A DNA stretch of 39,057 bases from an uncultured Oscillospiraceae bacterium (GTDB lineage: Bacteria > Bacillota > Clostridia > Oscillospirales > Oscillospiraceae), in NCBI GenBank assembly GCA_947588955.1, contig CANPYX010000024.1, positions 1 through 39,057 of the forward strand, in the 5' to 3' direction. Positions 1,207 to 18,722 of the stretch are shown piece by piece. The translations under genes were made by a program, and so were the position numbers. Numbering within the stretch: position 1 is the stretch's first letter; each line of letters opens with the position of its first letter. Below the pieces are notes generated by a model. It did not search any database and was not told the DNA's origin. It worked only from the letters and a program-made list of their open reading frames with translations.

Positions 1207-2286
1207 TTATTTTATAACCATTTCCGTCTCCCCGTCGAAGATGTATACCTCGCTCAGGGGTATGGAGAAGTCGATGGCGGAATCCACGGCGGGAGTGTCG
1301 TGGGGATCGACCTTCAAAATGGCCTTGTCCTCACCGGCGGTGATGTAGACGTTGGTGTTGTCTCCCAGCATCTCCGTGAGCTCCACATCGGCGCGGACAA
1401 CGTAGGCGTTGTCCTGCTTGCCAAGGACTATGGACTCTGGACGGAAGCCGAACACGATCTCCTTGCCCTCGTACTTCTTTGCCTTGTCGCCCAGCTTCTT
1501 TGTCACGTCAAGCTCGTTCTTGCCGAAGGCGAGCTTGCCGCCCTTGAGGGTGCCACGGACGAAGTTCATGGGCGGCTCGCCGATGAACCCGGCTACGAAC
1601 ACGTTCACCGGCTCATAGTAGAGGTCATAGGGCGTGCCCACCTGCTGGACATAGCCGTCCTTCATGACCACTATCCTGTCGGCAAGCGTCATGGCCTCGG
1701 TCTGGTCGTGGGTGACGTAAATTGTGGTGGCTCCCGTGTTCCGGTGGATCTGGGCGATCTCCGAGCGCATAGTCACGCGCTGCTTGGCGTCCAGGTTTGA
1801 AAGCGGCTCGTCCATGAGGAACACGCCCACCTTGCGGATTATGGCGCGGCCTATGGCGACACGCTGTCTCTGACCGCCTGAGAGAGCCCTGGGATAGCGG
1901 TCAAGGTAGTCCGTCAGTCCCAGTATCCTCGCGGTGTCCTTGACCTTCTGCTCGATGACGTCCTCGTCCACGCCCTGGAGGGTGAGTCCGAAGGCGATGT
2001 TGTCAAAGACCGTCATCTGCGGGTAGAGGGCGTAGCTCTGGAAGACCATCGCCACCTCCCGCTCCCTGGGTCCCAGCTCGTTGGCGCGCCTGCCGTTTAT
2101 GAGGAACTCACCGCTGGATATGTCCTCAAGTCCGGCGACCATGCGAAGCGTCGTGGACTTTCCGCAGCCGGAGGGTCCGACAAAGACGATAAACTCGCCC
2201 TTTTCAATGTCAAGATTGAAGTCGTGGACCGCGTGGAAGCCGTTGGGGTAGATCTTGTTGATATTTTTAAGGCTCAAGTATGACAT
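1207..2286 (-). CDS. ABC transporter ATPase, MsmK/UgpC/MalK family (copy 1)
   Basis: This is the nucleotide-binding subunit of a CUT1-type carbohydrate importer; it hydrolyses ATP on the cytoplasmic face of the permease pair. Visible motifs are Walker A GPSGCGKST (37-45), Q-loop VFQSYALYP (81-89), signature LSGGQ (135-139), Walker B VFLMDE (155-160) and the H-loop VTHDQTEA. A C-terminal MalK-type TOBE region follows from about residue 235. The length of 359 is normal. AAGGAG precedes the ATG. It is the last gene of the operon, 56 bp after the GH28 gene. A second ATPase of the same family lies at 5582-6655, so the operon encodes two. Whether they form a heterodimer or serve different permeases is unknown. 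Confidence 0.95.
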   Translation of the reverse strand: MSYLSLKNINKIYPNGFHAVHDFNLDIEKGEFIVFVGPSGCGKSTTLRMVAGLEDISSGEFLINGRRANELGPREREVAMVFQSYALYPQMTVFDNIAFGLTLQGVDEDVIEQKVKDTARILGLTDYLDRYPRALSGGQRQRVAIGRAIIRKVGVFLMDEPLSNLDAKQRVTMRSEIAQIHRNTGATTIYVTHDQTEAMTLADRIVVMKDGYVQQVGTPYDLYYEPVNVFVAGFIGEPPMNFVRGTLKGGKLAFGKNELDVTKKLGDKAKKYEGKEIVFGFRPESIVLGKQDNAYVVRADVELTEMLGDNTNVYITAGEDKAILKVDPHDTPAVDSAIDFSIPLSEVYIFDGETEMVIK

Positions 2287-2342
2287 AGATTTGTCTCCTT
2301 ACACATGATTTTTTCCGCGGGGTCAGGAAACAATGGTTTGAC

Positions 2343-3911
2343 TCAATCCTCATCAAATCCCTCTGTCTCGACACTGTCGCAGTGGGCGGCTATGAGCTTC
2401 TCGCCCTCCACCCCCCGGAGCTTCACGTTTTTAACGCTTATTCTCCTCACATTGTCGAGATACAGCCCCAGCCTGCACCTGTCGGGAGCAAACTCCTGCA
2501 TTGCGGGCTTGCCGGGCCTGGCGTCGGGGGAGAAGGAGACGCTTATGTTCTCCAACTCCACGCTCTCAATGGGACATTCCGTCAGCCCGTCTATGTAGCA
2601 GGCGGCGACCTCGGCGCCGGTGCACTCCATGTTGCGGAAGGCAAAGGAGCCCATGTGGGGCGTCCTGTCGTCAACGGGCAGCTTCTCCCTGCTCCAGACG
2701 TACTCGTCGTGAGCGTCCGGGTCACAGCAGTTGTACCACAGGTTGATGACTATCGGCGTCAGAACCCGGTCCATCTTGATGTTGTCAAAGAGGACGTTGT
2801 TTATGACGCTGTCCTTCCCCCTGCCCCTGCGGGACTTTATGCGAAGTCCCCTGTCGGTGGCGCGGAAGAGGCACTGGGTGACGGAAAGGTTGGTGACGCC
2901 GCCGGAGGCCTCGCTGCCCAGTGTCACGGCGCCGTGGCCGAACTCCATAAGGCAGTTGCGGATGGTGTATTTATCCGCCGGAGCCTTGTACTTGACGGCC
3001 ATCTCCAGCTTGCCGGATTTGATGGCGATACAGTCGTCACCGACCGAAAATTTACAGCCGATGATATTGACCGTGTCACAGCTCTCAGGATTGCACCCGT
3101 CTGTGTTGGGGCTGTCCTTTGGCGCCGTGACGCTACAGTCCAAAACGGAGACATCCTTGGAGAAGAACGGGTGGATGTGCCATGTGGGTCCGTTCTTCAC
3201 CGTGACCCCGTGGAGAGTTATGTGCTTGCACCTGTTCAGGAACAGGACCCTGGGACGCGCCGCGGGGAATTTGTCAAAGCCCTGCCACCAGTCGCCGTTC
3301 TGCCCGTTCCCGTCTATGGCTCCCGGTCCCACGATCGCCACATCCTCGCAAAAAGCGCCCTGGATAAGCGACTGGTACGCGGGCCTCTCAAGCCCCTCAA
3401 AGGAGGCGAGGGGTATCTCCCCGCCGGTTACGCCGTCGTGGGCGATACCGGTGATTATGGGGTATCTCTCCCTCTCCGTGGAGCCAAGGATCACCGCGCC
3501 ACGGGATATCTCCAGCGTGACGTGGCTTTTCAGCGACAGCGGGAGCGTGAGATACGTCCCCTCAGGGAAGTAAAGCCTCCCGCCCTCTGGGAGCATATTG
3601 ATCGCCGCCTGTATGGACGCCGTGTCCTCATGGACCCCGTCGCCCACCGCGCCGAAATCCCGGACGCTGAGACAGCAGGTCTCCACCGCCGTCGTGAGCT
3701 CCGCGCTCTCGCTCGCGCCGGAGGCGAACCGCAGCTCCACGCTGTATTTTGTCTCAGGCGTGAGCCCGTATAGGGAAAAGACATTGGTGGCGGACCGGCA
3801 GCGTTCCTCGCCGTTTACAAGTACCTCAAACTCCTCCGTAGAGAAGTGCGGCGCCGTGCCCTGAAGCTCAAAGCAGGCGGAGGTGCTGCCGCGGTAAAGG
3901 ATCTTGATCAT
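2343..3911 (-). CDS. Glycoside hydrolase family 28 (polygalacturonase-like), cytoplasmic
   Basis: This protein probably hydrolyses alpha-galacturonide linkages in imported pectin oligosaccharides. The parallel beta-helix carries the GH28 signatures: NTDGCNPES (catalytic Asp about 271), SVGDDCIAIKSG, EFGHGAVTLGSE (His about 325) and LRIKSRRGRGKD. An N-terminal fibronectin-III-like domain covers about 1-80, then the pectate-lyase-3-like opening VRDFGAVGDGVHEDTASIQA. There is no signal peptide, so it acts inside the cell, as expected for an exo-acting enzyme downstream of an importer. I chose the ATG at 3911 (522 residues): GAGGA lies 10 bases upstream and overlaps the previous stop codon, whereas an in-frame GTG at 3950 has no Shine-Dalgarno and would overlap the preceding gene. 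The family is clear; exo mode and exact substrate are inference. Confidence 0.9.
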   Translation of the reverse strand: MIKILYRGSTSACFELQGTAPHFSTEEFEVLVNGEERCRSATNVFSLYGLTPETKYSVELRFASGASESAELTTAVETCCLSVRDFGAVGDGVHEDTASIQAAINMLPEGGRLYFPEGTYLTLPLSLKSHVTLEISRGAVILGSTERERYPIITGIAHDGVTGGEIPLASFEGLERPAYQSLIQGAFCEDVAIVGPGAIDGNGQNGDWWQGFDKFPAARPRVLFLNRCKHITLHGVTVKNGPTWHIHPFFSKDVSVLDCSVTAPKDSPNTDGCNPESCDTVNIIGCKFSVGDDCIAIKSGKLEMAVKYKAPADKYTIRNCLMEFGHGAVTLGSEASGGVTNLSVTQCLFRATDRGLRIKSRRGRGKDSVINNVLFDNIKMDRVLTPIVINLWYNCCDPDAHDEYVWSREKLPVDDRTPHMGSFAFRNMECTGAEVAACYIDGLTECPIESVELENISVSFSPDARPGKPAMQEFAPDRCRLGLYLDNVRRISVKNVKLRGVEGEKLIAAHCDSVETEGFDED

Positions 3912-3924
3912 AATATCACGTTCC

Positions 3925-4563
3925 TCAATGGCTAGGCTTTCTGGCGTCACTGATGACGTTTTTCAGGGTGTTCCTCATCGCCACAAACAGCAGGTCCCAC
4001 CCCAGATAAAAAAGCCCGAACATTATGGGCTCAACGCCCAGCGGCAATACGTCTGTCAGGTTGCCTATCCTGATGATTGCGAAATTTATCACGTTGTACG
4101 TCATGAATACCAGGAACATCAGCACGATCGCGTAGAGGATATTCAGCGGGAAGGTGGCGAAGCTCTTGCGCTTTGAGCACATTATCCACTTATCCGCCGA
4201 TTTGTCGGACCGCTCGAAAAACCGAAGGGCGTTGTTGGTGAGAATGTCCGTCACCATCCCCAGCCCAATGGACGTTACAAACAGCAGATCCAGCTGGTCG
4301 GCGACGTAATTTCCCAGTCCCCACATGAAGAAGAAGCAGCACGCCGCGGCGAACCACCACTTTATGAAGCAGAAAATCACCCACTCCGCAAGCTTTATCT
4401 TGGGACCTGAGCGGTACTTCCGCAGCTCCTTCTCCGATACCGGCGGCGAATTTTCCTCGTTTGCGTTTACCAGGTCGTCCACGGCCTTGGTTTTAAGCTT
4501 GTAGTAGTCCGCCTGCTTGAGTATATCGTCGTGCGGGTCTTTCCTCTTGTTCTTTTTGCTCAT
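3925..4563 (-). CDS. Membrane protein of unknown function (operon protein D)
   Basis: I do not recognise this 212-residue protein. It has a charged, Lys-rich cytoplasmic N-terminus (about residues 1-58) and then about four hydrophobic segments: roughly 60-83, 88-108, 140-162 and 175-200. There is no signal peptide, no enzyme motif and no ABC permease EAA loop. AAAGAGGAA precedes the ATG at 4563. The gene follows a perfect intercistronic stem-loop at 4581-4610 and ends 13 bp before the GH28 start, so it belongs to the uptake operon. Its position between the two ATPase genes suggests a membrane accessory of the transporter, but nothing in the sequence proves this. Confidence 0.85.
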   Translation of the reverse strand: MSKKNKRKDPHDDILKQADYYKLKTKAVDDLVNANEENSPPVSEKELRKYRSGPKIKLAEWVIFCFIKWWFAAACCFFFMWGLGNYVADQLDLLFVTSIGLGMVTDILTNNALRFFERSDKSADKWIMCSKRKSFATFPLNILYAIVLMFLVFMTYNVINFAIIRIGNLTDVLPLGVEPIMFGLFYLGWDLLFVAMRNTLKNVISDARKPSH

Positions 4564-4580
4564 TGATGTTCCTCTTTGCT

Positions 4581-4610
4581 GATCGGGAGGCGCTTATGTA
4601 CCTCCCGATC
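4581..4610 (-). other. Intercistronic stem-loop without T tract
   Basis: A perfect 10-bp stem (GATCGGGAGG/CCTCCCGATC) closes a 10-base loop inside the 62-bp gap between two operon membrane genes. No T run follows on the minus strand. It is better read as an mRNA processing or stability element than as a terminator. Confidence 0.7.
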
Positions 4611-4625
4611 CACATCGGCGTAAGC

Positions 4626-5579
4626 TTATTCGCCCGAAATGTCGATGGCCTTCATGTCGCCGTTGCCCTCGACCTCAACGGAGGTCTTAACCTTCTTCAA
4701 AAGCTTTGAGTAAACGGGCAGCAGCACCGTCAGCACCACGCTCACAATAAGGAGCACCACGTGCGTCTGGAGCATATTGTATGCCACTATGATGGACGGG
4801 GTGTCCCTCAGCATTTTCGCGGCGTCCGGGCTGTTGTTGATTGCCTTGATCACAAGGTTGGAGTAGTATACGTCGGAGAATATCACTATCCCCGCCATGA
4901 CGAACAGAAGCACCACCATGGGGATATTGGGCTTTTTCCGGTACGGGAAGGCGTTGAGGCAGCACACCATGCTCAGAATCGACAGAAGCATGGTGGCAAA
5001 GCCCGCCAGCCCCATTCCGGTGGCCTGGATCTTTGCCGTGGTGTTGGAAACCGCGGTCAGATTCAGGGAGTAGAAGATGAAGGTCACCGCGAAGGCGCAC
5101 AGCGGTATGAGCTGGGGCCTGCGCTTTATGGAGACCATGAACTTGCGGCAGACCTCTTTCAGGTCCATCTTGCACAGCAGCAGGCACACAAACGTCGCCA
5201 AAGCGCCGGCAAATATGACCCAGAAGCCCACCAGAACGCCATTAGTACCCGTGAAGCTGCCCCTGCACGCGAGCATGACCACCGCCAGAACCAGCGCGCA
5301 AAGCCCGCTCACGTTCTGCAGGCCGCCCTTTCCGGTGATGAGGCCCGCCACAGCCAGCGCCAGCGCCGCTATGAGCACCAGCACCGCGATGGTGACGTAC
5401 ACGATGGGCACGGCGAAAAGTCCGCCTATGCTGTACTCCTGCACCGCCCACTGCATGAACTGCGCGGCGGACAGGTCAATACCCAGAAGTCCGGAGAAGG
5501 GCAGGAAAAGTCCCACAACACTGACGACAAGCAGCACTGCCATAACGATGCAGCCGATCTTAACCTTCTTGTTAGTCAT
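4626..5579 (-). CDS. Polytopic membrane protein of unknown function (operon protein C)
   Basis: I do not recognise this protein of about 317 residues. It shows about eight hydrophobic segments: near residues 7-29, 50-78, 84-102, 109-131, 150-170, 182-205, 215-235 and 267-293. The N-terminal segment could be an uncleaved signal anchor. There are no catalytic or ABC permease motifs. I start it at the ATG at 5579: GGAGG lies 9 bases upstream, while the in-frame GTG at 5585 is too close to that site. The start falls 2 bp after the stop of the ATPase gene, which implies translational coupling. Its place between the first ATPase and the GH28 enzyme ties it to sugar uptake; its role is unknown. Confidence 0.85.
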   Translation of the reverse strand: MTNKKVKIGCIVMAVLLVVSVVGLFLPFSGLLGIDLSAAQFMQWAVQEYSIGGLFAVPIVYVTIAVLVLIAALALAVAGLITGKGGLQNVSGLCALVLAVVMLACRGSFTGTNGVLVGFWVIFAGALATFVCLLLCKMDLKEVCRKFMVSIKRRPQLIPLCAFAVTFIFYSLNLTAVSNTTAKIQATGMGLAGFATMLLSILSMVCCLNAFPYRKKPNIPMVVLLFVMAGIVIFSDVYYSNLVIKAINNSPDAAKMLRDTPSIIVAYNMLQTHVVLLIVSVVLTVLLPVYSKLLKKVKTSVEVEGNGDMKAIDISGE

Positions 5580-5581
5580 GA

Positions 5582-6655
5582 TCACTTACCTCCCCTTATG
5601 GCGTTGGTGGTCTCCTTGTCGAAGAAGTGCTTTCTCGTGACGGAGAAGGACGCGGTGTCCCCCACCTTGTAGTTTTTCCACCCCTTGAGCTTGGCGGTGA
5701 CCTTCACGCCCGTGTTGCCGACGGAGCCGTAAACCAGGGTGTTCATTCCCAGGTTCTCGTTGTTGGTGACCGTCACCTTGATGTCGCTGCCCTCGGTGAA
5801 GTTCTCCGGGCGGACGCCCAGGGTGATCTCCTTGCCCTCGTATCCGGCAAGCGTCGCCTTCTCCTCGGCGGTGAGCGATACCTTGAAGCCGTTGCCCTGG
5901 AGCTCGCCACCCACCACCTTCACGTCGTAGAAGTTCATGGGCGGGAGCCCGATGAAGCTCGCCACGAACACGTTGTTGGGCGTATCGTAAAGCTCAAGCG
6001 GCGTGCCCACCTGCTGTACGTGTCCCATGGACATGCACACGATCCTGTCGGCAAGCGTCAGCGCCTCGGTCTGGTCGTGGGTGACGTAAAGCATGGTCGC
6101 CTGGAGCCTCTTGTGCAGGAGCAGTATCTCGCGCCGCGTCGCTCCGCGCAGCTTGGCGTCCAGGTTCGAGAGGGGCTCGTCGAAAAGGAACACCTTGGGG
6201 TTCCTGACGATGGACCGCCCCATCGCCACGCGCTGCCGCTGTCCGCCGGAGAGCTGCGCGGGCTTTTTATTGAGCTGGCTCGTAAGTCCCAGGACCTCGG
6301 CGGCGGCCAGCACCTTCTTGTGGATAACGTTGGGATTCTCCTTGCGGAGAGTCAGCGAGAACGCCATGTTCTCATAAATTGTCATGTGCCCGTACAGGGC
6401 GTAGCTTTGGAAGACCATCGCCATGTCCCTGTCCTTGGCAGGCGTCTGGGTGATGTCCTTTCCGTCCAGGAAAAGGTGGCCGTTGGAGATGTCCTCAAGC
6501 CCTGCCACCATGCGGAGCGTGGTGGATTTTCCGCAGCCGGAGGGACCGACCAGAACTATGAGCTCGCCATCCTTTACATCCAGATTGAAGTCAAAGACGG
6601 CTTGCACGTTGTTGTCATATATCTTGTCGATATGCTGTAAGCTCAGCGTAGCCAT
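5582..6655 (-). CDS. ABC transporter ATPase, MsmK/UgpC/MalK family (copy 2)
   Basis: This 357-residue nucleotide-binding subunit has Walker A GPSGCGKST (37-45), VFQSYALYG at the Q-loop, LSGGQRQRVAMGR, Walker B VFLFDE and LYVTHDQTEALTLADR, then a MalK-type C-terminal regulatory and TOBE domain. It closely resembles the ATPase at 1207-2286 over the core but differs clearly in the C-terminal third. It is therefore a diverged paralogue rather than a recent duplicate. TAAGGAG lies 9 bases before the ATG. It sits 12 bp after membrane protein B and 2 bp before membrane protein C. CUT1 importers usually use one ATPase as a homodimer, so two in one operon is notable. Confidence 0.95.
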   Translation of the reverse strand: MATLSLQHIDKIYDNNVQAVFDFNLDVKDGELIVLVGPSGCGKSTTLRMVAGLEDISNGHLFLDGKDITQTPAKDRDMAMVFQSYALYGHMTIYENMAFSLTLRKENPNVIHKKVLAAAEVLGLTSQLNKKPAQLSGGQRQRVAMGRSIVRNPKVFLFDEPLSNLDAKLRGATRREILLLHKRLQATMLYVTHDQTEALTLADRIVCMSMGHVQQVGTPLELYDTPNNVFVASFIGLPPMNFYDVKVVGGELQGNGFKVSLTAEEKATLAGYEGKEITLGVRPENFTEGSDIKVTVTNNENLGMNTLVYGSVGNTGVKVTAKLKGWKNYKVGDTASFSVTRKHFFDKETTNAIRGGK

Positions 6656-6667
6656 GTCTTCATCTCC

Positions 6668-7165
6668 TTACGCGTTCTGGTTTTCAAGGGTCTTCATATG
6701 AGCGGCAAGCTCATTACACTTGATGTAGTTAATTACGCCCGATGCTATGAGGCACACGCCCGAGGCTATGAGGCACACCACGCACAGCGTAAACTGCGCC
6801 GAGTGCATGACCTGAATGGTCACATCCCCCACGGTGAGCGTGGCGTTGTGGGCGGGTACCGGGAGAATAAATATCCTGACAAACTGTATAACTCCCAGCG
6901 CCAGCTCGATGTAGGTGTAATTCTTCTGATAATTCTTCACGCCCTCGGAGCTCAAAAACGCCGCCAGCATGAATATCAGGTTGTAAACTATGGAGACGCC
7001 GATTATCCACCTGTAATACCAGGTCTCCACGTCGGACTGGTAGATGCTCACAAAGTAGATGACGTCCAAAAGTATGGCAAGGTAGGCAAGATTGGCTGAG
7101 GGCTTATTTTTGATGTACCTCATCCTGTCTCTTTTGATGAGACGGTCCTCGTTGGACATGCTCAT
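6668..7165 (-). CDS. Small four-TM membrane protein of unknown function (operon protein B)
   Basis: I do not recognise this 165-residue protein. It has a basic N-terminus (KRDRMRYIKNK) followed by hydrophobic segments near residues 26-43, 51-72, 84-104 and 121-147. The last segment contains an exact seven-residue tandem repeat, CLIASGVCLIASGV, encoded by a 21-bp DNA tandem repeat. I chose the ATG at 7165, which overlaps the stop of the preceding gene as ATGA and has AAGGGGG seven bases upstream. A longer open frame to 7225 lies wholly inside the upstream gene and is unlikely. It is translationally coupled to protein A, so the two probably work as a pair in the membrane. Confidence 0.85.
   Translation of the reverse strand: MSMSNEDRLIKRDRMRYIKNKPSANLAYLAILLDVIYFVSIYQSDVETWYYRWIIGVSIVYNLIFMLAAFLSSEGVKNYQKNYTYIELALGVIQFVRIFILPVPAHNATLTVGDVTIQVMHSAQFTLCVVCLIASGVCLIASGVINYIKCNELAAHMKTLENQNA
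6735..6776. repeat. 21-bp tandem duplication inside membrane protein B
   Basis: Two adjacent 21-bp units (6735-6755 and 6756-6776) differ at a single base. They lie in frame and add seven residues to the last transmembrane segment. This looks like a recent replication-slippage event. Confidence 0.85.
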
Positions 7166-7773
7166 GCTTTGGCCCCCTTTCCGGCAAGGAGAGCCTTCTC
7201 CTCGCTCATGAGCTTCAGCTTCCACACCACATTGGCGATGAGGGCGGCAATAACCAGCACCAACAGCCCGAACACCAGATAGTGGATGTCAAAGGCAAAT
7301 GTTGACTCGGTGTACAGCGTGCCCCACATGTCCGAAAACTCCTTCAACCCCTCAAAATCCACGGTGGTGAGGAACTGCGTCCTGAACGCCTGGATCTGAA
7401 TGTGGCTGTATACCGTCAGGGCCAGCCCCACGACGGAGTAGAGCCCAATGGCGATGTAGTTTGTGATGTAGTAGCGCCTGCGGGTGCTTGTATTGGTGAC
7501 AAAGAGGAACGCGCCCAGAACTATCATCACAATGCTCCCTATGAGAAGCTTTTGGTTGAAGCCCTGCATATCCATGTAAATGGTGGCGCCCCCCACCTTC
7601 TCGCCGGAGGCGTATTTGTTGCCCGTACCCGTCTCGGTCTTGATGGTCACCGCCTGGTAAAGGCTGTCATAGATGTCTGTCATGATTCCCAGCGCGTAGA
7701 CGAACACCAGCGCGCTGATAATGATAGCCGCCAGACAGGTGAATTTTTGGATTTTTAACTGAGTTTTGTACAT
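7162..7773 (-). CDS. Four-TM membrane protein of unknown function (operon protein A)
   Basis: I do not recognise this 203-residue protein. It has hydrophobic segments near residues 12-34, 74-93, 103-122 and 163-187. A polar loop of about 40 residues lies between segments 1 and 2 and another between 3 and 4, which would place two extracytoplasmic loops beside the lipoprotein receptor. The C-terminus is basic. GAGAGGAGG lies five bases before the ATG. It is the first gene after the solute-binding protein (138-bp gap) and overlaps the next membrane gene by 4 bp. A role as a transporter accessory is inferred only from its place in the operon. Confidence 0.85.
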   Translation of the reverse strand: MYKTQLKIQKFTCLAAIIISALVFVYALGIMTDIYDSLYQAVTIKTETGTGNKYASGEKVGGATIYMDMQGFNQKLLIGSIVMIVLGAFLFVTNTSTRRRYYITNYIAIGLYSVVGLALTVYSHIQIQAFRTQFLTTVDFEGLKEFSDMWGTLYTESTFAFDIHYLVFGLLVLVIAALIANVVWKLKLMSEEKALLAGKGAKA

Positions 7774-7911
7774 GACGACCTCCTCTCAAGGATGCCGCCG
7801 CCCCGGGAGCCGGAGCTTCCGGGAATGTGCGGCGCATCCGTTTTGACTTCCCCAAAGCTTTCGCCGGGGGTCGTCTCAAAAATTTCGCGTGGGGTCAATC
7901 GAGTGGTTAAA

Positions 7912-10164
7912 TTACTTAATGCTGTTGTAATACTCCAGGGCCCTCTCCCAGCCGGTCTGCTGGATGCTGAGCCACTGCTTGCCGCTCCAGGCGTTCAGGA
8001 CGGTATCAACAGTCGCATCGGCGCTGGTGCGGGTGGAATCGGTGTAGCCGGAAACGATCTGCTGGATGAGGATGTTGTCCTCGCCCTTCTTCTGGCTGAA
8101 GTTGTCGTTGAGCTCGGTGTAGCTCTTGGCGAGGGAGTTCTCCTGCTCGGTCAGAGGCAGCAGGGTGGGAACGTTGGTGTACCAGGGGTTATCCGTAATG
8201 GCGTTCTCGGGGTGCTTGATGGTGCCGAGGGCAATGGCCCTGGAGATGTACCCGGCGCCCTCCTTGCCCACCTCATGCGTGCACTGATACTCAAAGGACT
8301 GGCTCTTGAGGAAGCTCAGGGTGGAGCCGATGTACTTACGGGCGTAGTCGGTGTAGTTGCCGTTGGTGAACTCCCACAGGTCCTCGGCGGAGGCGTCGGA
8401 GATGACGGGCCACTGCTCGCCGTTGAAGTCGAACATCTCATAGTGGTTCTCGTCGGCCATCTTCACGAAGGCGTCGGGGCCGTAGGAGAGAAGGATCTGT
8501 CCGTCCATGGTGTAGGCGTAGTCGATGAGCGCGAGGCAGGCGTTCAGCTTATCCTGGTCGCCGTTGATGCCCTCAACGGAGATGCCCCAGCCGTCGGTCT
8601 TGACGGAGCGCCAGGACTCGGTGAACCGCATGAGCTTCTCGCCGGTGCCGTCGTCCCAACGGGCCACGGGGACCATGACCGCCATGTACTTCTCGCCCTC
8701 GTCAAGAACGGTGGCGTTGTAAATGGTCTGGGTCTGGTTGTAGTCATAGTGCATGAAGGCGGCGTCCTTGTCAAGCAGGTCTTTGACCTGGGGATCGGCC
8801 TTGTTCACGAAGTCCTCACCGACGAGCCCCTCCTGGACAAGGGTGTTCATCCTCTCCATCGCCTTGTAGGTGTCTACCTCAAGGCGGGCGTCGTGCATGG
8901 CGCCGTCGCTGCCCACATAGAGGTAATCCTTGCGGGACTCAAGTCCGCGGACGCCCAGAAGGGTGCCTGCAAAGCGGAACATATCGATGCGGCGCTGGTT
9001 GTTAGCGTTCTCACGGCAGACTATGCCGCCCACGCTGTCGGTGCCGTTGAGGGTCTGGGCGTTGGCGACGACGCAGCGCAGGAGCGCCACCAGCTCGTCG
9101 GCGTCCCAGGCGGCGTTCTGACCGATAAAGAGGTTGGAACGGGTGTCGCCGTAATATCTGTTGTACGCGGTATCGATGTAGTCGCGGAGCATGTTCACGG
9201 CGTCAACGCCGCTCATGGAGCCGGCGGCGTTCATCTTCTCGATGATGTTGCCGGCGGCGTCGTAGTCCTTGGTTACCTGCTCAACGCCGGAGCCGTCGGG
9301 CTTCACAACGTCGATGGGGTACTTGCCGGATGTGGGCATGTAGGGCGTCCACGCGGGAGTGGCGGTGGTGCCGCAGGCGTCGGCGGTGAAGGCGTCGGGA
9401 CCGTCAAGAAGCTTCTGTACCCAGTCAACGCGCATAAGGGGCATACGCTCGATGTCGCTGACACCGTCGAAGTAGGGGCTGACGTAGATGGCGCCGGTGT
9501 CGGTATCGCTGACGATGGCCATGCGGACGATGGGGTTGGCGTCAAGATACGCCTTGAAGTTGGGCATCTTATCCAGGTACTCGCCGATGTTCACGAGCTT
9601 GCCCGCGACGCCGTTCTCGGAGAGGAGCTCGACAGTACCGGAGACCATGTCCACCTTCCCAAGCTCATTTACCCAGTTTTTGAACTCTTTCTCCGCGCTC
9701 TGACCGGAGTACATGGAGCCGTCGATCTTGAAGTGGAGGCGGTTCTGGATCTCCACCCAGGTGGGCTTCAGGTCGCCGGTGTGATAGGTCACGCCGTCAG
9801 CCAGGGTGATGCCCTCTCCCGCCACGTCAGCGTCGAAGAGAAGACCGGTCTGCTTGCTGTTGTAGCCGACAGCCATGCGGATCTCGGTGCCCTCCGCGTA
9901 GGGAAGGTCGGGGTTCTCATAGACGTGGTTGATGGCGGTGGGGTCGACCTCAGCGCCGCCGTTTCCGTCGTCGCCGGAGGTCTGGTTGTCGTTGGTTTGG
10001 TTGTTGTTCTGATTGTTGTTCTGGTTGTTGTTGGTGTTGGTGTTCGTGTTGTCCTGATCGCCCTGATTATTGTCGGGGATCTCGATCTTGTTGCAGGACG
10101 CGGCTACCGCGACCACAAGCACGAGAGCGAGCACAACGGCGATTATGGCTCTGAACTTTTTCAT
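7912..10164 (-). CDS. Large extracellular solute-binding lipoprotein (LplA/YtcQ-like, CUT1)
   Basis: This 750-residue receptor should capture oligosaccharides outside the cell for the importer encoded beside it. The N-terminus is a lipoprotein signal: KKFR, a hydrophobic stretch, then the lipobox AAS-Cys24. A disordered linker rich in Asn, Gln, Asp and Thr (about residues 30-70) tethers the domain to the membrane. The mature part has the acidic, aromatic-rich make-up of type-1 extracellular solute-binding proteins and is about 200-300 residues longer than monosaccharide receptors, as in the LplA/YtcQ group. AGGAGG precedes the ATG at 10164. A 140-bp structured gap separates it from the permease gene upstream. 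The ligand is not visible in the sequence; oligogalacturonide is inferred from the GH28 gene. Confidence 0.92.
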   Translation of the reverse strand: MKKFRAIIAVVLALVLVVAVAASCNKIEIPDNNQGDQDNTNTNTNNNQNNNQNNNQTNDNQTSGDDGNGGAEVDPTAINHVYENPDLPYAEGTEIRMAVGYNSKQTGLLFDADVAGEGITLADGVTYHTGDLKPTWVEIQNRLHFKIDGSMYSGQSAEKEFKNWVNELGKVDMVSGTVELLSENGVAGKLVNIGEYLDKMPNFKAYLDANPIVRMAIVSDTDTGAIYVSPYFDGVSDIERMPLMRVDWVQKLLDGPDAFTADACGTTATPAWTPYMPTSGKYPIDVVKPDGSGVEQVTKDYDAAGNIIEKMNAAGSMSGVDAVNMLRDYIDTAYNRYYGDTRSNLFIGQNAAWDADELVALLRCVVANAQTLNGTDSVGGIVCRENANNQRRIDMFRFAGTLLGVRGLESRKDYLYVGSDGAMHDARLEVDTYKAMERMNTLVQEGLVGEDFVNKADPQVKDLLDKDAAFMHYDYNQTQTIYNATVLDEGEKYMAVMVPVARWDDGTGEKLMRFTESWRSVKTDGWGISVEGINGDQDKLNACLALIDYAYTMDGQILLSYGPDAFVKMADENHYEMFDFNGEQWPVISDASAEDLWEFTNGNYTDYARKYIGSTLSFLKSQSFEYQCTHEVGKEGAGYISRAIALGTIKHPENAITDNPWYTNVPTLLPLTEQENSLAKSYTELNDNFSQKKGEDNILIQQIVSGYTDSTRTSADATVDTVLNAWSGKQWLSIQQTGWERALEYYNSIK

Positions 10165-10238
10165 AAAGATCCTCCTAAAATTTTTATATTCCTCCGGCGT
10201 CCGCCGGACGGATCACAAATAATTAAAGGCTTTTCCGT

Positions 10239-10291
10239 GGTCGGTTTACACTCGACCGGCTTACGCAGCCGGCCTCTGCTCTCGACCGACC
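10239..10291 (-). other. Nested stem-loops between permease and receptor genes
   Basis: An outer stem (GGTCGGT at 10239-10245 with ACCGACC at 10285-10291) encloses an inner stem (CCGGCT at 10256-10261 with AGCCGG at 10267-10272). A further small hairpin lies at 10194-10207. None has a T tract. Such structures between a receptor gene and its permeases often set differential mRNA stability. That role is inference here. Confidence 0.55.
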
Positions 10292-10304
10292 GCCACGCCA
10301 GAAA

Positions 10305-11195
10305 TCACTCCTTGACGCCGCCGACGTTCACGCCCTTGGCGAAGTATTTCTGGATGAAGGGATAGATTATAAGTATGGGGACTATGGAGCAAACCACCAG
10401 CGCGTAGATGACAGAGTCCGCGGCGTAGGGCCTGTTCCAGGAAGTGAGGAACTCAGACTCCGTGTACTGCTCCAGCGTCAGGCGGATAAACACCTGAAGG
10501 GGCTGCTCGTACTGGTTCCTTATCATCTGGCGCGCCCAGAAGTAGCCGTTCCAGCGGGAGATTGCGAAGAACAGCGCAACCGTCGCGATGGTGGACTTGC
10601 TCATGGGAAGGTAGACGTTGGTGAGCACCTGCATCTCCGTGGCGCCGTCGACTATCGCCGCCTCCTCGATCTCGGAGGGGACTCCCTCGAAGGCGTTCCT
10701 CAGAAGGATGATGTTCATCGCCGCCATGCCCATGGCTATGACCACAAGCCACTTGTCGTCCACGATTCCCACGGCGTTGAAGACCGTCCTCGTGGCTATG
10801 TAGTTCAAATACTGGGGCACGACGCCGGCGGAGAACCACATGGTGAACACCAGGAAGAAGTTGAAGGTCTTCCTGAAGAGGAGCCTCTTCTTCGACAGGG
10901 CGTAGGCGCCCAGAATGGCGGTGAACATCGCGAAGAGCGTACCGTAGAGGGTGATGAACAGCGTGTTGGAGTAGGCGTTCCAGAACATGTTGTTGTTGAA
11001 CATCTGGGAGAACGCCTGGAACTGTATCCCCTTCGGGAACAGTACGATCTCGCCGTACTCCACCGCCTCGCGCCCGGATATGGCGGAGGATATGGCGAAG
11101 ACGAAGGGATAGAGGCACGCCAGCGCGAACACGGTCAGCAGGGTGTAGCTTATGATTTTGAAGATCAGCTCAGTGATTTCAAGCTTTCTTTTCAT
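10305..11195 (-). CDS. Carbohydrate ABC permease, YtcP/LplC (MalG-like) family
   Basis: This inner-membrane permease subunit of a CUT1 importer has 296 residues and about six transmembrane segments. It carries the cytoplasmic coupling loop EGVPSEIEEAAIVDGATEM (EAA motif) that contacts the ATPase, about residues 172-190. The start KRKLEITELIFKIISYTLLT and the ending YPFIQKYFAKGVNVGGVKE are typical of the LplC/YtcP group, including the terminal GxVKG/E. The gene lies 12 bp after its partner permease and pairs with it as the transmembrane heterodimer. ABC import of an oligosaccharide is firm; the sugar is not visible. Confidence 0.94.
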   Translation of the reverse strand: MKRKLEITELIFKIISYTLLTVFALACLYPFVFAISSAISGREAVEYGEIVLFPKGIQFQAFSQMFNNNMFWNAYSNTLFITLYGTLFAMFTAILGAYALSKKRLLFRKTFNFFLVFTMWFSAGVVPQYLNYIATRTVFNAVGIVDDKWLVVIAMGMAAMNIILLRNAFEGVPSEIEEAAIVDGATEMQVLTNVYLPMSKSTIATVALFFAISRWNGYFWARQMIRNQYEQPLQVFIRLTLEQYTESEFLTSWNRPYAADSVIYALVVCSIVPILIIYPFIQKYFAKGVNVGGVKE

Positions 11196-11207
11196 GGCAC
11201 CCTCCTA

Positions 11208-12266
11208 TTAATAGAGCGACGTGTTGGACGCCTTGCGGGCTATGGTGTTGGCTCCTATGACCAGCAGCATCCCCACCACGTTGTTCATCATCTCGGCTGC
11301 CGACGCTATGCCCTGCGTCGTCTGCGAGCCCAACATTCCCAGCCTGTAGGACAGGGTGGAGACCACGTCGGCGGTCACATAGGTGTCGGTGTTGTAAAGG
11401 AGCAATACCTTTTCATAACCCACGTTCAGCAGGGAGCCGATACGGGTTATGAGCATGATGACCACGGTGGAGAGTATGCTGGGGATGACCACGTAGCGCA
11501 TCTGCGCCCACTTGTTTGCGCCGTCGATCTGCGCGGCCTCATAGCTGGTGGGAGAGATGGCGATGATAGCCGCGAAGAACACTATGCTGTCATAGCCCGC
11601 GCCCTCCCAGATGCCGCTGATCTGGTAAATTGAACGGAAGAAGGATGGGTTGTTGAGAAGTCCCGCGTTTCCGGTCTCCGTTGAGATGAGCTTCAGCCCC
11701 ACGAGCGCGCGGCTGATAACGCCCATACCGGCGATGGAGGACCCCTGCTTCACAAGCATGGTCACCAGAGAGGTCATGATAACGGTGGACATGAACTTGG
11801 GAAGGTAGGTGAGGACCTGGAAGACGCTCCTGGCGGCGTTTGACCTGACCTCGTTGAAGAACAAAGCCAAAATGATCGGCATGGGGAAGCCGAAGCACAG
11901 GCCGTAGAAGCTGAGGATAAAGGTGTTCCTCATGGCTCTCCAGAAGTCCGTCGAAAGCTGTGTCCCGCCCACAAGCAGCTGCTTGAAGTATGAAAATCCG
12001 GAGAAAAGCTGCTTTGACACCGGCAGAACGCCGTCGTAGACCTTGAAGCAGCTCAGGAGCTCATACATCGGGAAGTAGCGCCAGAACAGGAAGACCAGGA
12101 GCATGGGGACCAGCATCAGGTAGAGGCGCCAGTCCTTAGCCACCGTCCTGACAACGTGGAGCCAGTAGTGCTTTTCCACATCGTCCCGGACGACTTGTTC
12201 CGGATCTTCTCTGTATACGCCCGTTTCCTGGTCGTATACGAGGAAATCCGCTGCCCTAACTTTCAT
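11208..12266 (-). CDS. Carbohydrate ABC permease, LplB/YteP (MalF-like) family
   Basis: This is the second permease subunit of the importer. The 352-residue protein begins with a cytoplasmic tail of about 50 residues and then about six transmembrane segments. The first carries the typical LplB sequence YLMLVPMLLVFLFWRYFPMY. The EAA loop is SYEAAQIDGANKWAQMRYVV. It ends near ANTIARKASNTSLY, the usual LplB C-terminus. I chose the ATG at 12266, where AAAGGAGG lies six bases upstream. The open frame runs further to 12359, but that extension lies inside the upstream gene and has no matching site. It starts 2 bp after the stop of the preceding gene, so the two are coupled. Confidence 0.94.
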   Translation of the reverse strand: MKVRAADFLVYDQETGVYREDPEQVVRDDVEKHYWLHVVRTVAKDWRLYLMLVPMLLVFLFWRYFPMYELLSCFKVYDGVLPVSKQLFSGFSYFKQLLVGGTQLSTDFWRAMRNTFILSFYGLCFGFPMPIILALFFNEVRSNAARSVFQVLTYLPKFMSTVIMTSLVTMLVKQGSSIAGMGVISRALVGLKLISTETGNAGLLNNPSFFRSIYQISGIWEGAGYDSIVFFAAIIAISPTSYEAAQIDGANKWAQMRYVVIPSILSTVVIMLITRIGSLLNVGYEKVLLLYNTDTYVTADVVSTLSYRLGMLGSQTTQGIASAAEMMNNVVGMLLVIGANTIARKASNTSLY

Positions 12267-12268
12267 TT

Positions 12269-12847
12269 TTAACCTCCTTTTTTCTCCTTTTCCGCCTGGA
12301 GGCGGAGAAGGTAATGTTTTTGATCCTCGTAGACGCCATCCAGCCTTCTGACGATCCACGCGATCACAAGGGTAAATAGGTAAGACAGGCTGTCAGTTAG
12401 GAAGAAGCCTGCCGCCACCGCCGGCGGCTCGCCGAAAAGCATAGCCGTCAGCGCCCTTCCGCCGTGCATGAGCGCCTGCACGAGAAGAGGAAACGCGAAC
12501 GGGAGGAACTGTCCCGTCCTCACCTTCTCCTTGCCCACCCCAAAGAGCAGTATCAGGGAGAGCATCGAAAAGAGGTTTCCCACGCAGTATATAACGTACT
12601 GTTCTCCCGCGGCGCCGGAAAACAGGCAGAAGATAAATCCGGAGAGGGCGGCGTGTATCCCGCCCCAGGCGCCCCAGCGCATGTATACCACCGAGGCGAT
12701 TATCGCCGCCGGCGAGACGGTGTAGAGCTGGTCCGGGAACCAGACCCTCGCGGCGACTGTTGTGAGGTACTCAACTACGGCTGTGATTATGGCGAAGATT
12801 ATAAGGTCGATGGCCTTGTACTCGCCCAGGCTTCTTTGTCTTTCCAT
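12269..12847 (-). CDS. Small integral membrane protein, first gene of the operon (ECF S-component-like topology)
   Basis: This 192-residue protein has five to six hydrophobic segments from about residue 12 to 180 and a short charged C-terminus (DQKHYLLRLQAEKEKKGG). The small size, dense helices and Gly/Ala-rich segments (YMRWGAWGGIHAALSG) recall substrate-binding S components of ECF transporters. I cannot confirm that family by eye, and no ECF T or A subunit lies nearby. I chose the ATG at 12847, preceded by GAAGGGGAA; an open frame to 12967 would run through leader hairpins. Its stop lies 2 bp before the LplB-type permease, so it is part of the uptake operon. Function unknown. Confidence 0.8.
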   Translation of the reverse strand: MERQRSLGEYKAIDLIIFAIITAVVEYLTTVAARVWFPDQLYTVSPAAIIASVVYMRWGAWGGIHAALSGFIFCLFSGAAGEQYVIYCVGNLFSMLSLILLFGVGKEKVRTGQFLPFAFPLLVQALMHGGRALTAMLFGEPPAVAAGFFLTDSLSYLFTLVIAWIVRRLDGVYEDQKHYLLRLQAEKEKKGG

Positions 12848-12870: not shown

Positions 12871-12910
12871 TTTTGTTTTGCGTGGCAAAACAAAAAACGC
12901 GTACGCGTTT
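12871..12910 (-). promoter_or_regulatory. Operon leader: palindrome and overlapping terminator-like hairpin
   Basis: An 11-bp perfect inverted repeat (TTTTGTTTTGC at 12871-12881, GCAAAACAAAA at 12885-12895, 3-bp spacer) lies just upstream of the first operon gene. On the minus-strand RNA, AAACGC-GTAC-GCGTTT (12895-12910) followed by a T-rich run forms a terminator-like hairpin. That T run is one arm of the palindrome, so the two RNA structures compete. This fits a repressor site, an attenuator, or both. Confidence 0.55.
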
Positions 12911-13288: not shown

Positions 13289-13310
13289 TTACACATTGAG
13301 GAGGCGTGTC

Positions 13311-14831
13311 ATGAGAGGACTTGAGTCGAACAAAACGAAGATCCGCCACAAGATATTCACCGAGATAGCCCGCACCGCCTACGAGGGTTCGGACATCTCA
13401 AAGGAGATACTCCGCCTGCCCTACAAGATAATCCCCGGCGAGGTGGCTACATACCGGGACAGCATCTTTTTGGAGCGCGCCATAGTGGGCGAGCGGCTCA
13501 GGCTCGCCATGGGGCTTCCCATACGCAACGTGGCGGAGCAGGTGGAGCTCAACGAGGGCGTTGACGAGAGCGCCATCGCGGAGAAATACTACACCCCTCC
13601 CCTGATAAACGTTATAAAATTCGCCTGCAACAAGTGCCCGGAGAAGCGCGTGGCGGTCACGGACGCCTGCCAGGGCTGCTTTGAGCACCCCTGCCTTGAG
13701 GTCTGCCCAAGAAAGGCGATCTCCATGGTGAACGGCAAAAGCGTCATCGACGAGCACCTGTGCGTCAAGTGCGGCAGGTGCGTGGACGCCTGCTCCTACC
13801 ACGCCATAGTCAAGCAGGAGCGCCCCTGCGCCGCCGTCTGCGGCATGGGAGCCATAAAGACCGACTCCTACGGCAGGGCGGAGATCGACCAGACAAAGTG
13901 CGTCTCCTGCGGGCAGTGCCTCGTCTCCTGCCCCTTCGCCGCAATAGCCGACAAGGGACAGATTTACCAGACGATAATGGCGATAAAGAGCGGCACGCCC
14001 GTCTACGCCGCCATCGCCCCCGCCTTCTGCGGGCAGTTCGGCACGCACATGACATACGACAAGATGCGCCCCGCCTTTAAAGCCCTGGGCTTTACCGACC
14101 TTGTGGAGGTCTCCATCGGCGCGGACATCTGCACCCTCCAGGAGGCCCAGGACTTCCTGCGTGAGGTGCCGGAGGAAAAGCCCTTTATGGCCACCTCCTG
14201 CTGCCCGGCGTGGACGATGATGGCAAAGAAGCTCTTCCCCACCCTGGCGGACAACATATCCATGGCGCTGACGCCCATGGTGCTCACCGGGCGGATGATT
14301 AAGAAGGACCATCCCGGCTGTAAGGTCTGCTTCATAGGGCCCTGCGCCGCAAAGAAGCTGGAGGCGAGCCGCAAGGAGATACGCTCCGACGTGGACTTTG
14401 TGCTCACCTTCGAGGAGGTCCTGGGGATGTTCGAGGCAAAGGAGCTTGACCCCGCTGAGCTGCCCTCCGATCCCATGAACGAGGCCACCGCCGACGGGCG
14501 GGGCTTCGCCGTGGCCGGAGGCGTGGCGCAGGCGGTGGTGAACGCCGCCGCGAGGCTCGCCCCGGACAGGGAGATAAAGGTCGCCCACGCCAACGGGCTT
14601 GCGGAGTGCAAGAAGATGCTGACCCTGGCAAAGGCGGGCAAATACAACGGCTACCTCTTAGAGGGCATGGGCTGTCCCGGCGGCTGTGTCGCCGGCGCCG
14701 GCACCATCGCGGCGGTGCAATACTCCGCCTCCGAGGTGAAAAAGGCCCAGGACAGCACCGACGCCAAGTGCATTTTGGAGAGCAAATACCTCCACTACCT
14801 GCCCCTCATTGAGGAGAGAGATCCTCAGTAA
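13311..14831 (+). CDS. Monomeric [FeFe] hydrogenase with N-terminal 4Fe-4S clusters
   Basis: This 506-residue cytoplasmic enzyme catalyses reversible H2 formation from reduced ferredoxin or a similar carrier. The H-cluster motifs are L1 TSCCPAW (295-301; Cys297 for proton transfer, Cys298 a ligand), L2 GPCAAKKLEA (Cys345) and L3 EGMGCPGGCVAGAG (Cys455, Cys459). The N-terminal half holds a Cys-rich block (FACNKCP, ACQGCFEHPCLEVCP) and two further ferredoxin-type motifs (CVKCGRCVDACS, CVSCGQCLVSCP). L2 has GPC where the classic clostridial CpI type has MPC, and L3 has EGMGCPGG rather than EFMACPGG. I infer the group B branch. There is no HydB/HydC partner or maturase nearby. I start at the ATG at 13311 with GAGGAGG upstream, not the in-frame TTG at 13296. 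Confidence 0.93.
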   Translation: MRGLESNKTKIRHKIFTEIARTAYEGSDISKEILRLPYKIIPGEVATYRDSIFLERAIVGERLRLAMGLPIRNVAEQVELNEGVDESAIAEKYYTPPLINVIKFACNKCPEKRVAVTDACQGCFEHPCLEVCPRKAISMVNGKSVIDEHLCVKCGRCVDACSYHAIVKQERPCAAVCGMGAIKTDSYGRAEIDQTKCVSCGQCLVSCPFAAIADKGQIYQTIMAIKSGTPVYAAIAPAFCGQFGTHMTYDKMRPAFKALGFTDLVEVSIGADICTLQEAQDFLREVPEEKPFMATSCCPAWTMMAKKLFPTLADNISMALTPMVLTGRMIKKDHPGCKVCFIGPCAAKKLEASRKEIRSDVDFVLTFEEVLGMFEAKELDPAELPSDPMNEATADGRGFAVAGGVAQAVVNAAARLAPDREIKVAHANGLAECKKMLTLAKAGKYNGYLLEGMGCPGGCVAGAGTIAAVQYSASEVKKAQDSTDAKCILESKYLHYLPLIEERDPQ

Positions 14832-17485: not shown

Positions 17486-18718
17486 TTACTTGGCCTCGTA
17501 GTTGATGACGATGGTGCCGGGATCAATTTCCTGGAAATTGCCTTCGTCCAGGTCGACGAAGCCGACGCTGACCTTCAGGTCGCCGCCGCTGATGATGTCG
17601 GCGATGCAGCCATTATTGATCTCGTATGTCACGGTTTCGACCTGCTCGCCGGTGACGGTGTCGTACCAGACGGCGCCGGTCTTGCCGTCAACTGTGGCGA
17701 CCTTGACGTCGGCTATCTCGCCGGTAATGACCGCCTCGGTGTCGGTGCAGTCGATGACCTTGACCTCAACCGGCTCGGAGCCGGCGGCAAGCGCCGTGGT
17801 AGCGACGCATCCCACCGCGAGGATCAGGGCAAGCAAGAGCCCGAATATCACGTGGGACCTCTTTTTTGATTCCATCATTGTTTCAATTCTCCTTTCAAGC
17901 TTTTCACGGCAGGAGGCGAAGGATACAAATGCCCCCTCCCGCCGCGTCGCGGGAGCGCAGTCGATGAGAAGATACCCGTACTCGCGCCGCCCGTCCCTGT
18001 CAAGCCCGCTGACTACCCGCTCGTCGCAGGACGTCTCCATGAGCGCGGACATATCCCGGCACATGAGGTACGCCGCCGGATTGAACCAGTGTACGGAGCG
18101 TATGACGCCGAACGCCAGCTTCCTCCAAAGGTCCAGCCGCCGGAAGTGGATAAGCTCGTGGGTGATGATGAGCCTCAGCTCGCCCTGGGAGAGCTCACGC
18201 TCGGGCAGGAGTATCACCGGCGTGAAAAATCCCACCAGCATGGGGCTGAGGACCACCGGCGAGACGTAGATACGCGCCCTTTGGCGCACGCCCGCCATAT
18301 TCGCGGCGTCCTCCGCCGCCATACGCTCCCGCTCCCCGGCCTCTTTGGCGCCGGTCATCAGGAGCCTCCGGCAGCGCATCGCCTTGACGATATCCGTCAA
18401 CGTGAGGACCGCCGCCACCGCAAGCCACACCGCCGCCGCAAGGTCGATATACCGCCCGTATACCGCCGCGGGGACAGCCGGACGGGGCGCGGATAGCGCG
18501 CCCGAGGGGATAAGTACCACGACCCGCGGTCTTCCCGGCAGAGCGAACCACAGCCTGTGAATCGGCAGTAAATAGAGCGCCGCAACAAGTGCCGTGGCGG
18601 TATAGCGCCATCGCTGGGTGAGCCTGTCCCCTCCCAGGTGTGAGAGGAGCTTTAAAAGCAGATATGCCGCGCCTCCCGCCAGACTCATGGAGAGGACGGA
18701 AAGAAACAGCTCCCTCAT
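17486..18718 (-). CDS. BlaR1/MecR1-like M56 membrane metallopeptidase, non-beta-lactam sensor
   Basis: This is a signal-transducing membrane protease of the M56 family, expected to control the BlaI-like repressor encoded just upstream. The 410-residue protein has N-terminal transmembrane segments (about 1-18, 35-57 and 93-113) and a cytoplasmic zinc protease domain with HELIH (His187-His191) and a downstream ALMETSCDERVVSG Glu/Asp ligand region. A fourth membrane segment follows near 288-308. The extracytoplasmic tail is only about 100 residues, mostly beta-like (VEVKVIDCTDTEAVITGEI), and lacks the SxxK/SxN/KTG penicillin-binding sensor of BlaR1. The signal is therefore probably not a beta-lactam. 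I start at the ATG at 18718: AAGGAG lies seven bases upstream and spans the repressor's stop codon. Confidence 0.88.
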   Translation of the reverse strand: MRELFLSVLSMSLAGGAAYLLLKLLSHLGGDRLTQRWRYTATALVAALYLLPIHRLWFALPGRPRVVVLIPSGALSAPRPAVPAAVYGRYIDLAAAVWLAVAAVLTLTDIVKAMRCRRLLMTGAKEAGERERMAAEDAANMAGVRQRARIYVSPVVLSPMLVGFFTPVILLPERELSQGELRLIITHELIHFRRLDLWRKLAFGVIRSVHWFNPAAYLMCRDMSALMETSCDERVVSGLDRDGRREYGYLLIDCAPATRREGAFVSFASCREKLERRIETMMESKKRSHVIFGLLLALILAVGCVATTALAAGSEPVEVKVIDCTDTEAVITGEIADVKVATVDGKTGAVWYDTVTGEQVETVTYEINNGCIADIISGGDLKVSVGFVDLDEGNFQEIDPGTIVINYEAK

Positions 18719-18722
18719 GTCC

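What the first reader, a model, noticed from the sequence alone, without database searches (positions are those of the whole stretch)
1207..12847. Oligogalacturonide-type importer operon with two ATPases and four orphan membrane proteins
One operon carries a complete CUT1 importer (large lipoprotein, LplB- and YtcP-type permeases), a cytoplasmic GH28 hydrolase, two diverged MsmK/UgpC-type ATPases and four membrane proteins that match no transporter subunit I know. The four lie as two translationally coupled or adjacent pairs around one ATPase. Known CUT1 systems use one ATPase homodimer and no such extra subunits. The layout suggests either a second membrane complex driven by its own ATPase or accessory subunits that assist the receptor. 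The sequence shows the gene order and topology; the joint function is inference.
Basis: partly seen in the sequence, partly recalled or inferred. Interest (0 to 1): 0.75.

Follow-up and report, generated by a model that had tools for sequence, protein, structure and literature searches.

The report
Pectin-sugar importer with extra membrane proteins
Gut bacteria carry a sugar importer, probably for pectin fragments, that comes with two motor proteins and five unexplained membrane proteins in a conserved gene order, which suggests that these proteins are extra parts of the transporter.

Summary

A genome scan seeded on memA gave 219 relatives; the best 80 loci were examined. Where the contig has room, memB is present in 79 of 79, ATPase 2 in 72 of 72, memC in 71 of 71, memD in 70 of 70 and LplB in 57 of 57, in one order. 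Among 295 order genomes, memA and close LplB orthologues occur in the same eight. Twenty non-member LplB loci match no mem profile. A diverged copy keeps the order beside heparinase-like genes.

Best reading: a polyuronide-oligosaccharide CUT1 importer with obligate accessory membrane subunits. Co-occurrence is strong; assembly, substrate and mechanism are inferred. New variant of a known kind.

The parts
12269..12847 (-). mem0: membrane protein with predicted ECF S-component fold, first gene of the operon
11208..12266 (-). LplB-type CUT1 permease
   Evidence: PF00528 4e-9; EAA motif in 57 of 57
10305..11195 (-). YtcP-type CUT1 permease
   Evidence: PF00528 1.5e-8; EAA motif in 60 of 61
7912..10164 (-). 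large lipoprotein, presumed substrate-binding protein (750 aa)
   Evidence: signal and lipobox-like start seen in the sequence; no Pfam over cut-off, no PDB relative by phmmer at E 0.01; called receptor by its position and by weak matches (14-42 bits) of its profile to ORFs beside plain LplB/YtcP genes
7162..7773 (-). memD: orphan 4-TM protein
   Evidence: no family over cut-off, nothing convincing for relatives or PDB; 70 of 70 loci with room
6668..7165 (-). memC: orphan 4-TM protein, overlaps memD by 4 bases
   Evidence: no family over cut-off, nothing convincing for relatives or PDB; 71 of 71 loci with room; fused to memD in L057
5582..6655 (-). ATPase 2 (UgpC/MsmX type), between memC and memB
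   Evidence: 72 of 72 loci with room; nucleotide-binding motifs in 76 of 76, one of them with a signature variant
4626..5579 (-). memB: conserved 4-TM family (4626-5162) with a lineage-specific N-terminal membrane extension (5163-5579)
   Evidence: conserved part in 79 of 79 loci with room; no family
3925..4563 (-). memA: 4-TM protein with a conserved N-terminal segment, presumed cytosolic
   Evidence: AlphaFold2 pLDDT 81.1, pTM 0.69, helices confident, residues 1-58 low; no PDB fold match over noise
2343..3911 (-). cytoplasmic GH28 (polygalacturonase-type); probable start at 3911
   Evidence: PF00295 3e-38; best PDB match exo-poly-alpha-D-galacturonosidase 3jur; the slot varies between loci
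1207..2286 (-). ATPase 1 (UgpC/MsmX type), last gene
   Evidence: downstream of memA in 55 of 56 loci with room, motifs in 67 of 67

Best explanation
A dedicated CUT1 (type I) ABC importer for acidic pectin oligosaccharides, in which mem0 and memA-D are obligate accessory membrane subunits. Steps: oligogalacturonides released outside are captured by the lipoprotein; LplB/YtcP, coupled by their EAA helices to the UgpC-type ATPases, move them in; GH28 (elsewhere also GH105 and GH4) cuts them in the cytoplasm. The accessory proteins most likely form a membrane collar or scaffold beside the permease pair. The conserved tail of memA would hold or regulate the ATPases, and the S-component-like mem0 together with the four-helix proteins would dock the large lipoprotein or help the polyanionic substrate enter. 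Shown: gene content, order, co-occurrence, predicted folds of mem0 and memA. Inferred: physical assembly, the role of each subunit, the substrate, and whether the two ATPases pair as a heterodimer.
For: Seeded on memA alone, every examined locus with room carries LplB (57 of 57), YtcP (60 of 60), memB-D and ATPase 2. memA and LplB at 59% or more occur in the same 8 of 295 order genomes; memB and LplB occur together in 21 of 34 genus genomes and 10 have neither. memD and memC are one natural fusion in L057, with a rewritten junction. No EAA motif in any mem family. memA has nine invariant residues (Y21, L23, A27, L31, A34, N38, P40, E46, Y50; 68 sequences) in a segment poorly ordered in the isolated model, as expected of a partner-binding tail. 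Uronide enzymes lie in the variable slot: GH28, GH105, GH4 (one representative per cluster tested). A diverged copy keeps LplB-YtcP-SBP-memD-memC-ATPase-memB-memA beside heparinase-like, SDR and IclR genes, and three of its four mem proteins match best their own profile. mem0 has the predicted fold of a transport component. Twenty plain LplB loci have no mem match.
Against: Everything is genetic and predicted; no complex was modelled or measured. The mem proteins diverge faster (mean pairwise identity 0.54-0.58) than permeases and ATPases (0.83-0.85), which does not suggest tight burial in the core. Distance correlations do not single out mem-permease pairs. In the diverged copy the memB position has no sequence match, the memC match is weak (11.7 bits), and no mem0 lies next to it. 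G154 has another gene order. 22 of 80 loci have no GH28 in the fetched stretch, so the substrate is not certain for all. In the genus, G010 and G012 have memB but no LplB above the threshold anywhere in the assembly, and G027 the reverse; all three operons end at contig ends. Known pectin and GAG importers are described without such proteins (PMC11466899, PMC5430744, passages).
Confidence: 0.6

Rival explanations
1. A second membrane complex: memA-D with ATPase 2 form a separate ABC machine, while LplB/YtcP use ATPase 1.
For: In the examined loci with room ATPase 2 lies between memC and memB. In a tree of 14 sequences each, ATPase 1 and 2 are separate groups (SH-aLRT 96 and 99), so two engines for two complexes are possible.
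Against: ATPase 2 has the OB domain of CUT1 ATPases. No mem family has an EAA coupling motif. The diverged copy has one ATPase in the block, in the ATP2 position, with LplB/YtcP present, so that ATPase would serve the permeases unless another ATPase of the genome does. memA was not found without LplB/YtcP where contigs allow.
Confidence: 0.15
2. Sensory or regulatory module: mem0 is an S-fold receptor and memA-D relay substrate state to the ATPases (gating), without being parts of the transport path.
For: The S-component fold is shared with sensor histidine kinases (PMC11109136, abstract and passages). The EcfT-docking AxxxA motif is in only 24 of 49 mem0 sequences. memA has a conserved tail. 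The MalK-type TOBE domain is described as a hub for regulatory proteins (passage).
Against: No output domain or regulator is constant in the block: an AraC-type cluster has 12 members among the 80 loci (one representative tested). Five membrane proteins are many for a gate.
Confidence: 0.15
3. Passenger genes: the membrane proteins have a separate envelope function and are only inherited with the operon.
For: Fast divergence. The operon appears to have passed between families, which carries passengers along.
Against: No loss of memB, memC or memD in 70-79 loci with room. The order is kept in a diverged copy with another enzyme set. Passengers would be expected to be lost from some copies.
Confidence: 0.1

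Closest known systems
B. subtilis YtcQ-YtcP-YteP and YesOPQ importers energised by MsmX (PMC7658222 and PMC11466899, passages seen)
   Same: LplB/YtcP-type permease pair, receptor, MsmX/UgpC-type ATPase, galacturonan oligomers
   Different: One shared orphan ATPase, modelled as MsmX2, with no further membrane subunits listed, against two ATPase genes in the operon and five membrane proteins here. The receptor here is 750 aa; in the plain LplB loci where one was recognised it is 504-598 aa (nine loci, and one fragment)
Streptobacillus moniliformis Smon0120-0123 glycosaminoglycan importer (PMC5430744, abstract and passages seen)
   Same: Uronide-oligosaccharide importer with two permeases, a receptor and an ATPase; the diverged copy here also sits by a heparinase-like gene
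   Different: Purified as a tetramer Smon0121-0122/(0120)2 whose ATPase responds to receptor and sugar in liposomes without accessory membrane proteins
ECF-transporter S-components (ThiT, RibU, FolT, PanT); fold family in PMC11109136 (abstract and passages seen)
   Different: No Pfam S-component hit, AxxxA motif in 24 of 49 only, located in a CUT1 operon
MreD
   Different: Cell-shape protein (passage); weaker match than most S-components

Membership tests
CUT1 / type I ABC importer | Two BPD_transp_1 permeases with EAA loops | tested here: met
   PF00528 in both; EAA motif (pattern recalled) in LplB 57 of 57 and YtcP 60 of 61
CUT1 / type I ABC importer | ATPase with MalK-type OB domain and intact nucleotide-binding motifs | tested here: met
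   OB_MalK over cut-off in both; TOBE_2 over cut-off in ATP1 only; motifs (patterns recalled) in 67 of 67 ATP1 and 76 of 76 ATP2, one signature variant
CUT1 / type I ABC importer | Extracytoplasmic lipoprotein receptor | tested here: inconclusive
   Lipobox-like start seen in the sequence, but no Pfam SBP family over cut-off and no PDB relative
CUT1 / type I ABC importer | Uptake of di- or oligosaccharides | not testable with these tools
   only enzyme context
Known composition: receptor + two permeases + ATPase homodimer | One ATPase gene and no constant further subunits | tested here: not met
   Both ATPase genes and five membrane genes in nearly all loci with room
ECF S-component (mem0) | Six-helix S-component fold | tested here: met
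   on a predicted model only; Foldseek E-values 0.04 and above
ECF S-component (mem0) | AxxxA EcfT-docking motif in helix 1 | tested here: not met
   in 24 of 49 sequences; at positions 20 and 24 Ala in 43 and 24 of 49
ECF S-component (mem0) | Sequence family of S-components (PF12822) | tested here: not met
   not among the 14 families that any of 49 members matched at E up to 1
ECF S-component (mem0) | Works with an EcfAA'T module | not tested
   no search for EcfT was made
Common ancestry of mem0 and memA-D | Detectable profile similarity among them | tested here: not met
   hhalign probability at most 6.9% (memD-memA, 8 columns); reversed controls up to 2.9%; positive control LplB-YtcP 81%

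The most novel reading that the evidence does not exclude
A new class of ABC importer for polyuronide oligosaccharides: a CUT1 translocator with a heterodimeric ATPase pair, surrounded by a constant membrane assembly of four four-helix subunits and one S-component-fold subunit that takes part in substrate hand-over or ATPase control, so that an ECF-type building block works inside a type I importer.
Probability: 0.3. Interest if true: 0.88.

Novelty: new variant of a known kind. Interest (0 to 1): 0.7.

Why it matters
Sugar importers of this type are treated as complete with a receptor, two permeases and an ATPase dimer. A version that keeps five further membrane proteins and two ATPases across several gut and rumen families would mean that the parts list is incomplete for a lineage that lives on pectin. 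It would also place the S-component fold, known from vitamin importers and sensor kinases, inside a carbohydrate importer. The claim is directly testable: one genome that carries the block, Erysipelotrichaceae bacterium NK3D112 (L117), bears no MAG mark in its title and is apparently an isolate. It would also give five families without annotation a first function.
Full report
WHAT IS THERE. Its nearest named relative, L046 (99% in memA), is titled uncultured Oscillospiraceae bacterium, isolate 'Lapin'. On the minus strand lie, in order of transcription: mem0 (12847-12269), LplB (12266-11208), YtcP (11195-10305), a 750-aa lipoprotein (10164-7912), memD (7773-7162), memC (7165-6668), ATPase 2 (6655-5582), memB (5579-4626), memA (4563-3925), GH28 (3911-2343) and ATPase 1 (2286-1207). 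Pfam and NCBIfam confirm permeases, ATPases and GH28, and give nothing over a cut-off for mem0 and memA-D. A promoter-like site lies upstream at 13117-13089 (10 of 12 positions); the region has 14 such sites against 5.5 expected, so this is only suggestive.

CONSERVATION IN THE GENUS. memB was sought in 60 relatives and is in 23, all among the 34 of the genus. LplB at 80% identity or more is in 22 of the same 34. Both are in 21 (in four of these, G009, G011, G018 and G020, on different contigs), neither in 10. The three with one only (G010, G012, G027) have the operon cut by a contig end, and the missing gene was not found elsewhere in the assembly at the threshold used. One further genome, G042, has an LplB at 40% whose locus has no mem gene. 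memB is full-length in six copies and matches only from about residue 138-141 on in the others, so the N-terminal part is a lineage-specific addition.

CONSERVATION BEYOND IT. One scan of the genome collection (one genome for each of 84,980 species by its description) with two memA peptide patterns found 219 relatives among 288 candidate stretches. The best 80 were kept by the tool and all 80 were examined; relatives without the two patterns, and the other 139, were not seen. Titles assign 41 to Oscillospiraceae, 10 to Lachnospiraceae, 6 to Erysipelotrichaceae, 22 to Clostridia or Eubacteriales without family, and 1 to Chloroflexota. Counting only loci whose contig reaches far enough, the component was found over 70% of its profile for memB 79 of 79, ATPase 2 72 of 72, memC 71 of 71, memD 70 of 70, SBP 61 of 62 (one split ORF), YtcP 60 of 60, LplB 57 of 57, mem0 55 of 56 (one at 59%), and ATPase 1 downstream 55 of 56 (missing in L119). 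Fifty-six loci hold all nine upstream components and none has another order. The scan was seeded on memA, so memA without the importer would have been seen among these 80.

THE REVERSE TEST. In 295 genomes drawn from the order, memA is in 8. LplB at 59% identity or more is in the same 8; nine others match only at 38-40% (E up to 1e-60, at most seven candidates scored per genome). Both draws have 295 genomes and the matching handles agree. At family level memB is in 11 of 200. In the phylum sample memA is in 1 of 398, the window's own genome, so the system is rare and patchy. As a control I fetched 20 regions, chosen by hand among the higher-scoring non-member LplB matches (41-46% to the diverged copy's LplB) of a class search in which 104 of 371 genomes matched. 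All have LplB followed by YtcP; a receptor was recognised in ten (nine of 504-598 aa, one fragment). Same-strand ORFs showed no match to any mem profile, although L226, L229 and L232 hold small ORFs (169-268 aa) with four or five hydrophobic stretches, one of them (L226) right after the receptor. The window genome's other four UgpC-type ATPase loci have no mem match in the stretches fetched.

A DIVERGED COPY. G316 holds, besides the main block, a second locus (L173) with LplB (47%), YtcP, receptor, and then four small membrane proteins around one ATPase, in the same order. With profiles built without it, the proteins in the memD, memC and memA positions match their own family (22.1, 11.7 and 38.4 bits; E 5e-8, 6.5e-5 and 3e-13 for a set of eight sequences); other families and reversed controls reach at best E 0.02. 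The protein in the memB position matches nothing. Neighbours are a heparinase II/III-like protein, a DUF4962 protein, an SDR dehydrogenase and an IclR regulator, which points to another uronic-acid polysaccharide. The fetched stretch has one CUT1-type ATPase and no adjacent mem0. That ATPase groups with ATP2 (SH-aLRT 85) on a long branch, so its place is unsure. A further distant version, G154, has memB-memA-GH28-receptor on one contig and ATP1-mem0-LplB-YtcP on another, so the gene order is not absolutely fixed outside the 80.

SUBSTRATE. The slot between memA and ATPase 1 holds GH28 alone, GH28 with further genes, other genes, or nothing. One representative of each cluster was tested: the cluster of 51 is GH105/GH88 (PF07470), that of 12 an AraC regulator, that of 5 a GH4; the cluster of 25 matched no family; a singleton is a nucleoside-hydrolase-like protein. 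In all, 58 of 80 loci have a GH28 match somewhere in the fetched stretch and 22 do not. The window's GH28 is closest in the PDB to an exo-poly-alpha-D-galacturonosidase. Pectic oligosaccharides are therefore the likely cargo; this is inference from context.

HOW IT MIGHT WORK. Shown by sequence: a CUT1 core, two ATPases with intact motifs, EAA motifs in the permeases and in none of the mem families, and the constant company of five membrane proteins. Inferred: an assembly in which these proteins sit beside the core, with the memA tail as a candidate ATPase contact. ATP1 and ATP2 form separate groups in a tree of 14 sequences each and both persist, which fits a heterodimer but does not show it. 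The accessory proteins diverge faster than the core (mean pairwise identity 0.54-0.58 against 0.83-0.85 over 47 complete loci; receptor 0.68), which places them nearer the variable outside or the lipid than the conserved engine. The core tree needs at least three changes of label for Lachnospiraceae and four for Oscillospiraceae, and puts the Erysipelotrichaceae beside three of five Lachnospiraceae. Labels come from record titles, mostly of MAGs, so transfer between families is likely but not proven.

WHAT IS KNOWN. Importers of this type for pectin and GAG oligomers are described as receptor, two permeases and an ATPase dimer: MsmX2 with YtcQ-YtcP-YteP (PMC11466899 and PMC7658222, passages) and Smon0121-0122/(0120)2 (PMC5430744, passages). 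The passages seen on Butyrivibrio pectin transporters mention no extra subunits (PMC6344614). My eight paper searches listed no description of the module. I therefore call it a new variant of a known kind: a CUT1 importer by its core, with additions that no known member I could find has. That it is one functional machine is a strong hypothesis, not a result.

Noticed in passing
L173:7810-14966 (G316:C4): Diverged second copy of the importer block with one ATPase, beside heparinase II/III-like, DUF4962, SDR and IclR genes.
   Followed up: partly
window 5163-5579: N-terminal 139 residues of memB are an extra membrane domain found in six of 23 genus copies; origin unknown.
   Followed up: no
L057:6802-7905: Natural in-frame fusion of memD and memC.
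   Followed up: partly
L137 and L174 (G154): Distant version with the receptor after GH28 and ATPase 1 before mem0, on two contigs.
   Followed up: no
window 12871-12910, minus strand: Two terminator-like hairpins between the promoter-like site and mem0, a possible leader structure; 18 such sites in the region against 10.5 expected.
   Followed up: no
window 13296-14828: Divergent neighbour is an iron-only hydrogenase-like protein with ferredoxin domains.
   Followed up: no
window 17489-18739: BlaR1-type M56 peptidase.
   Followed up: no
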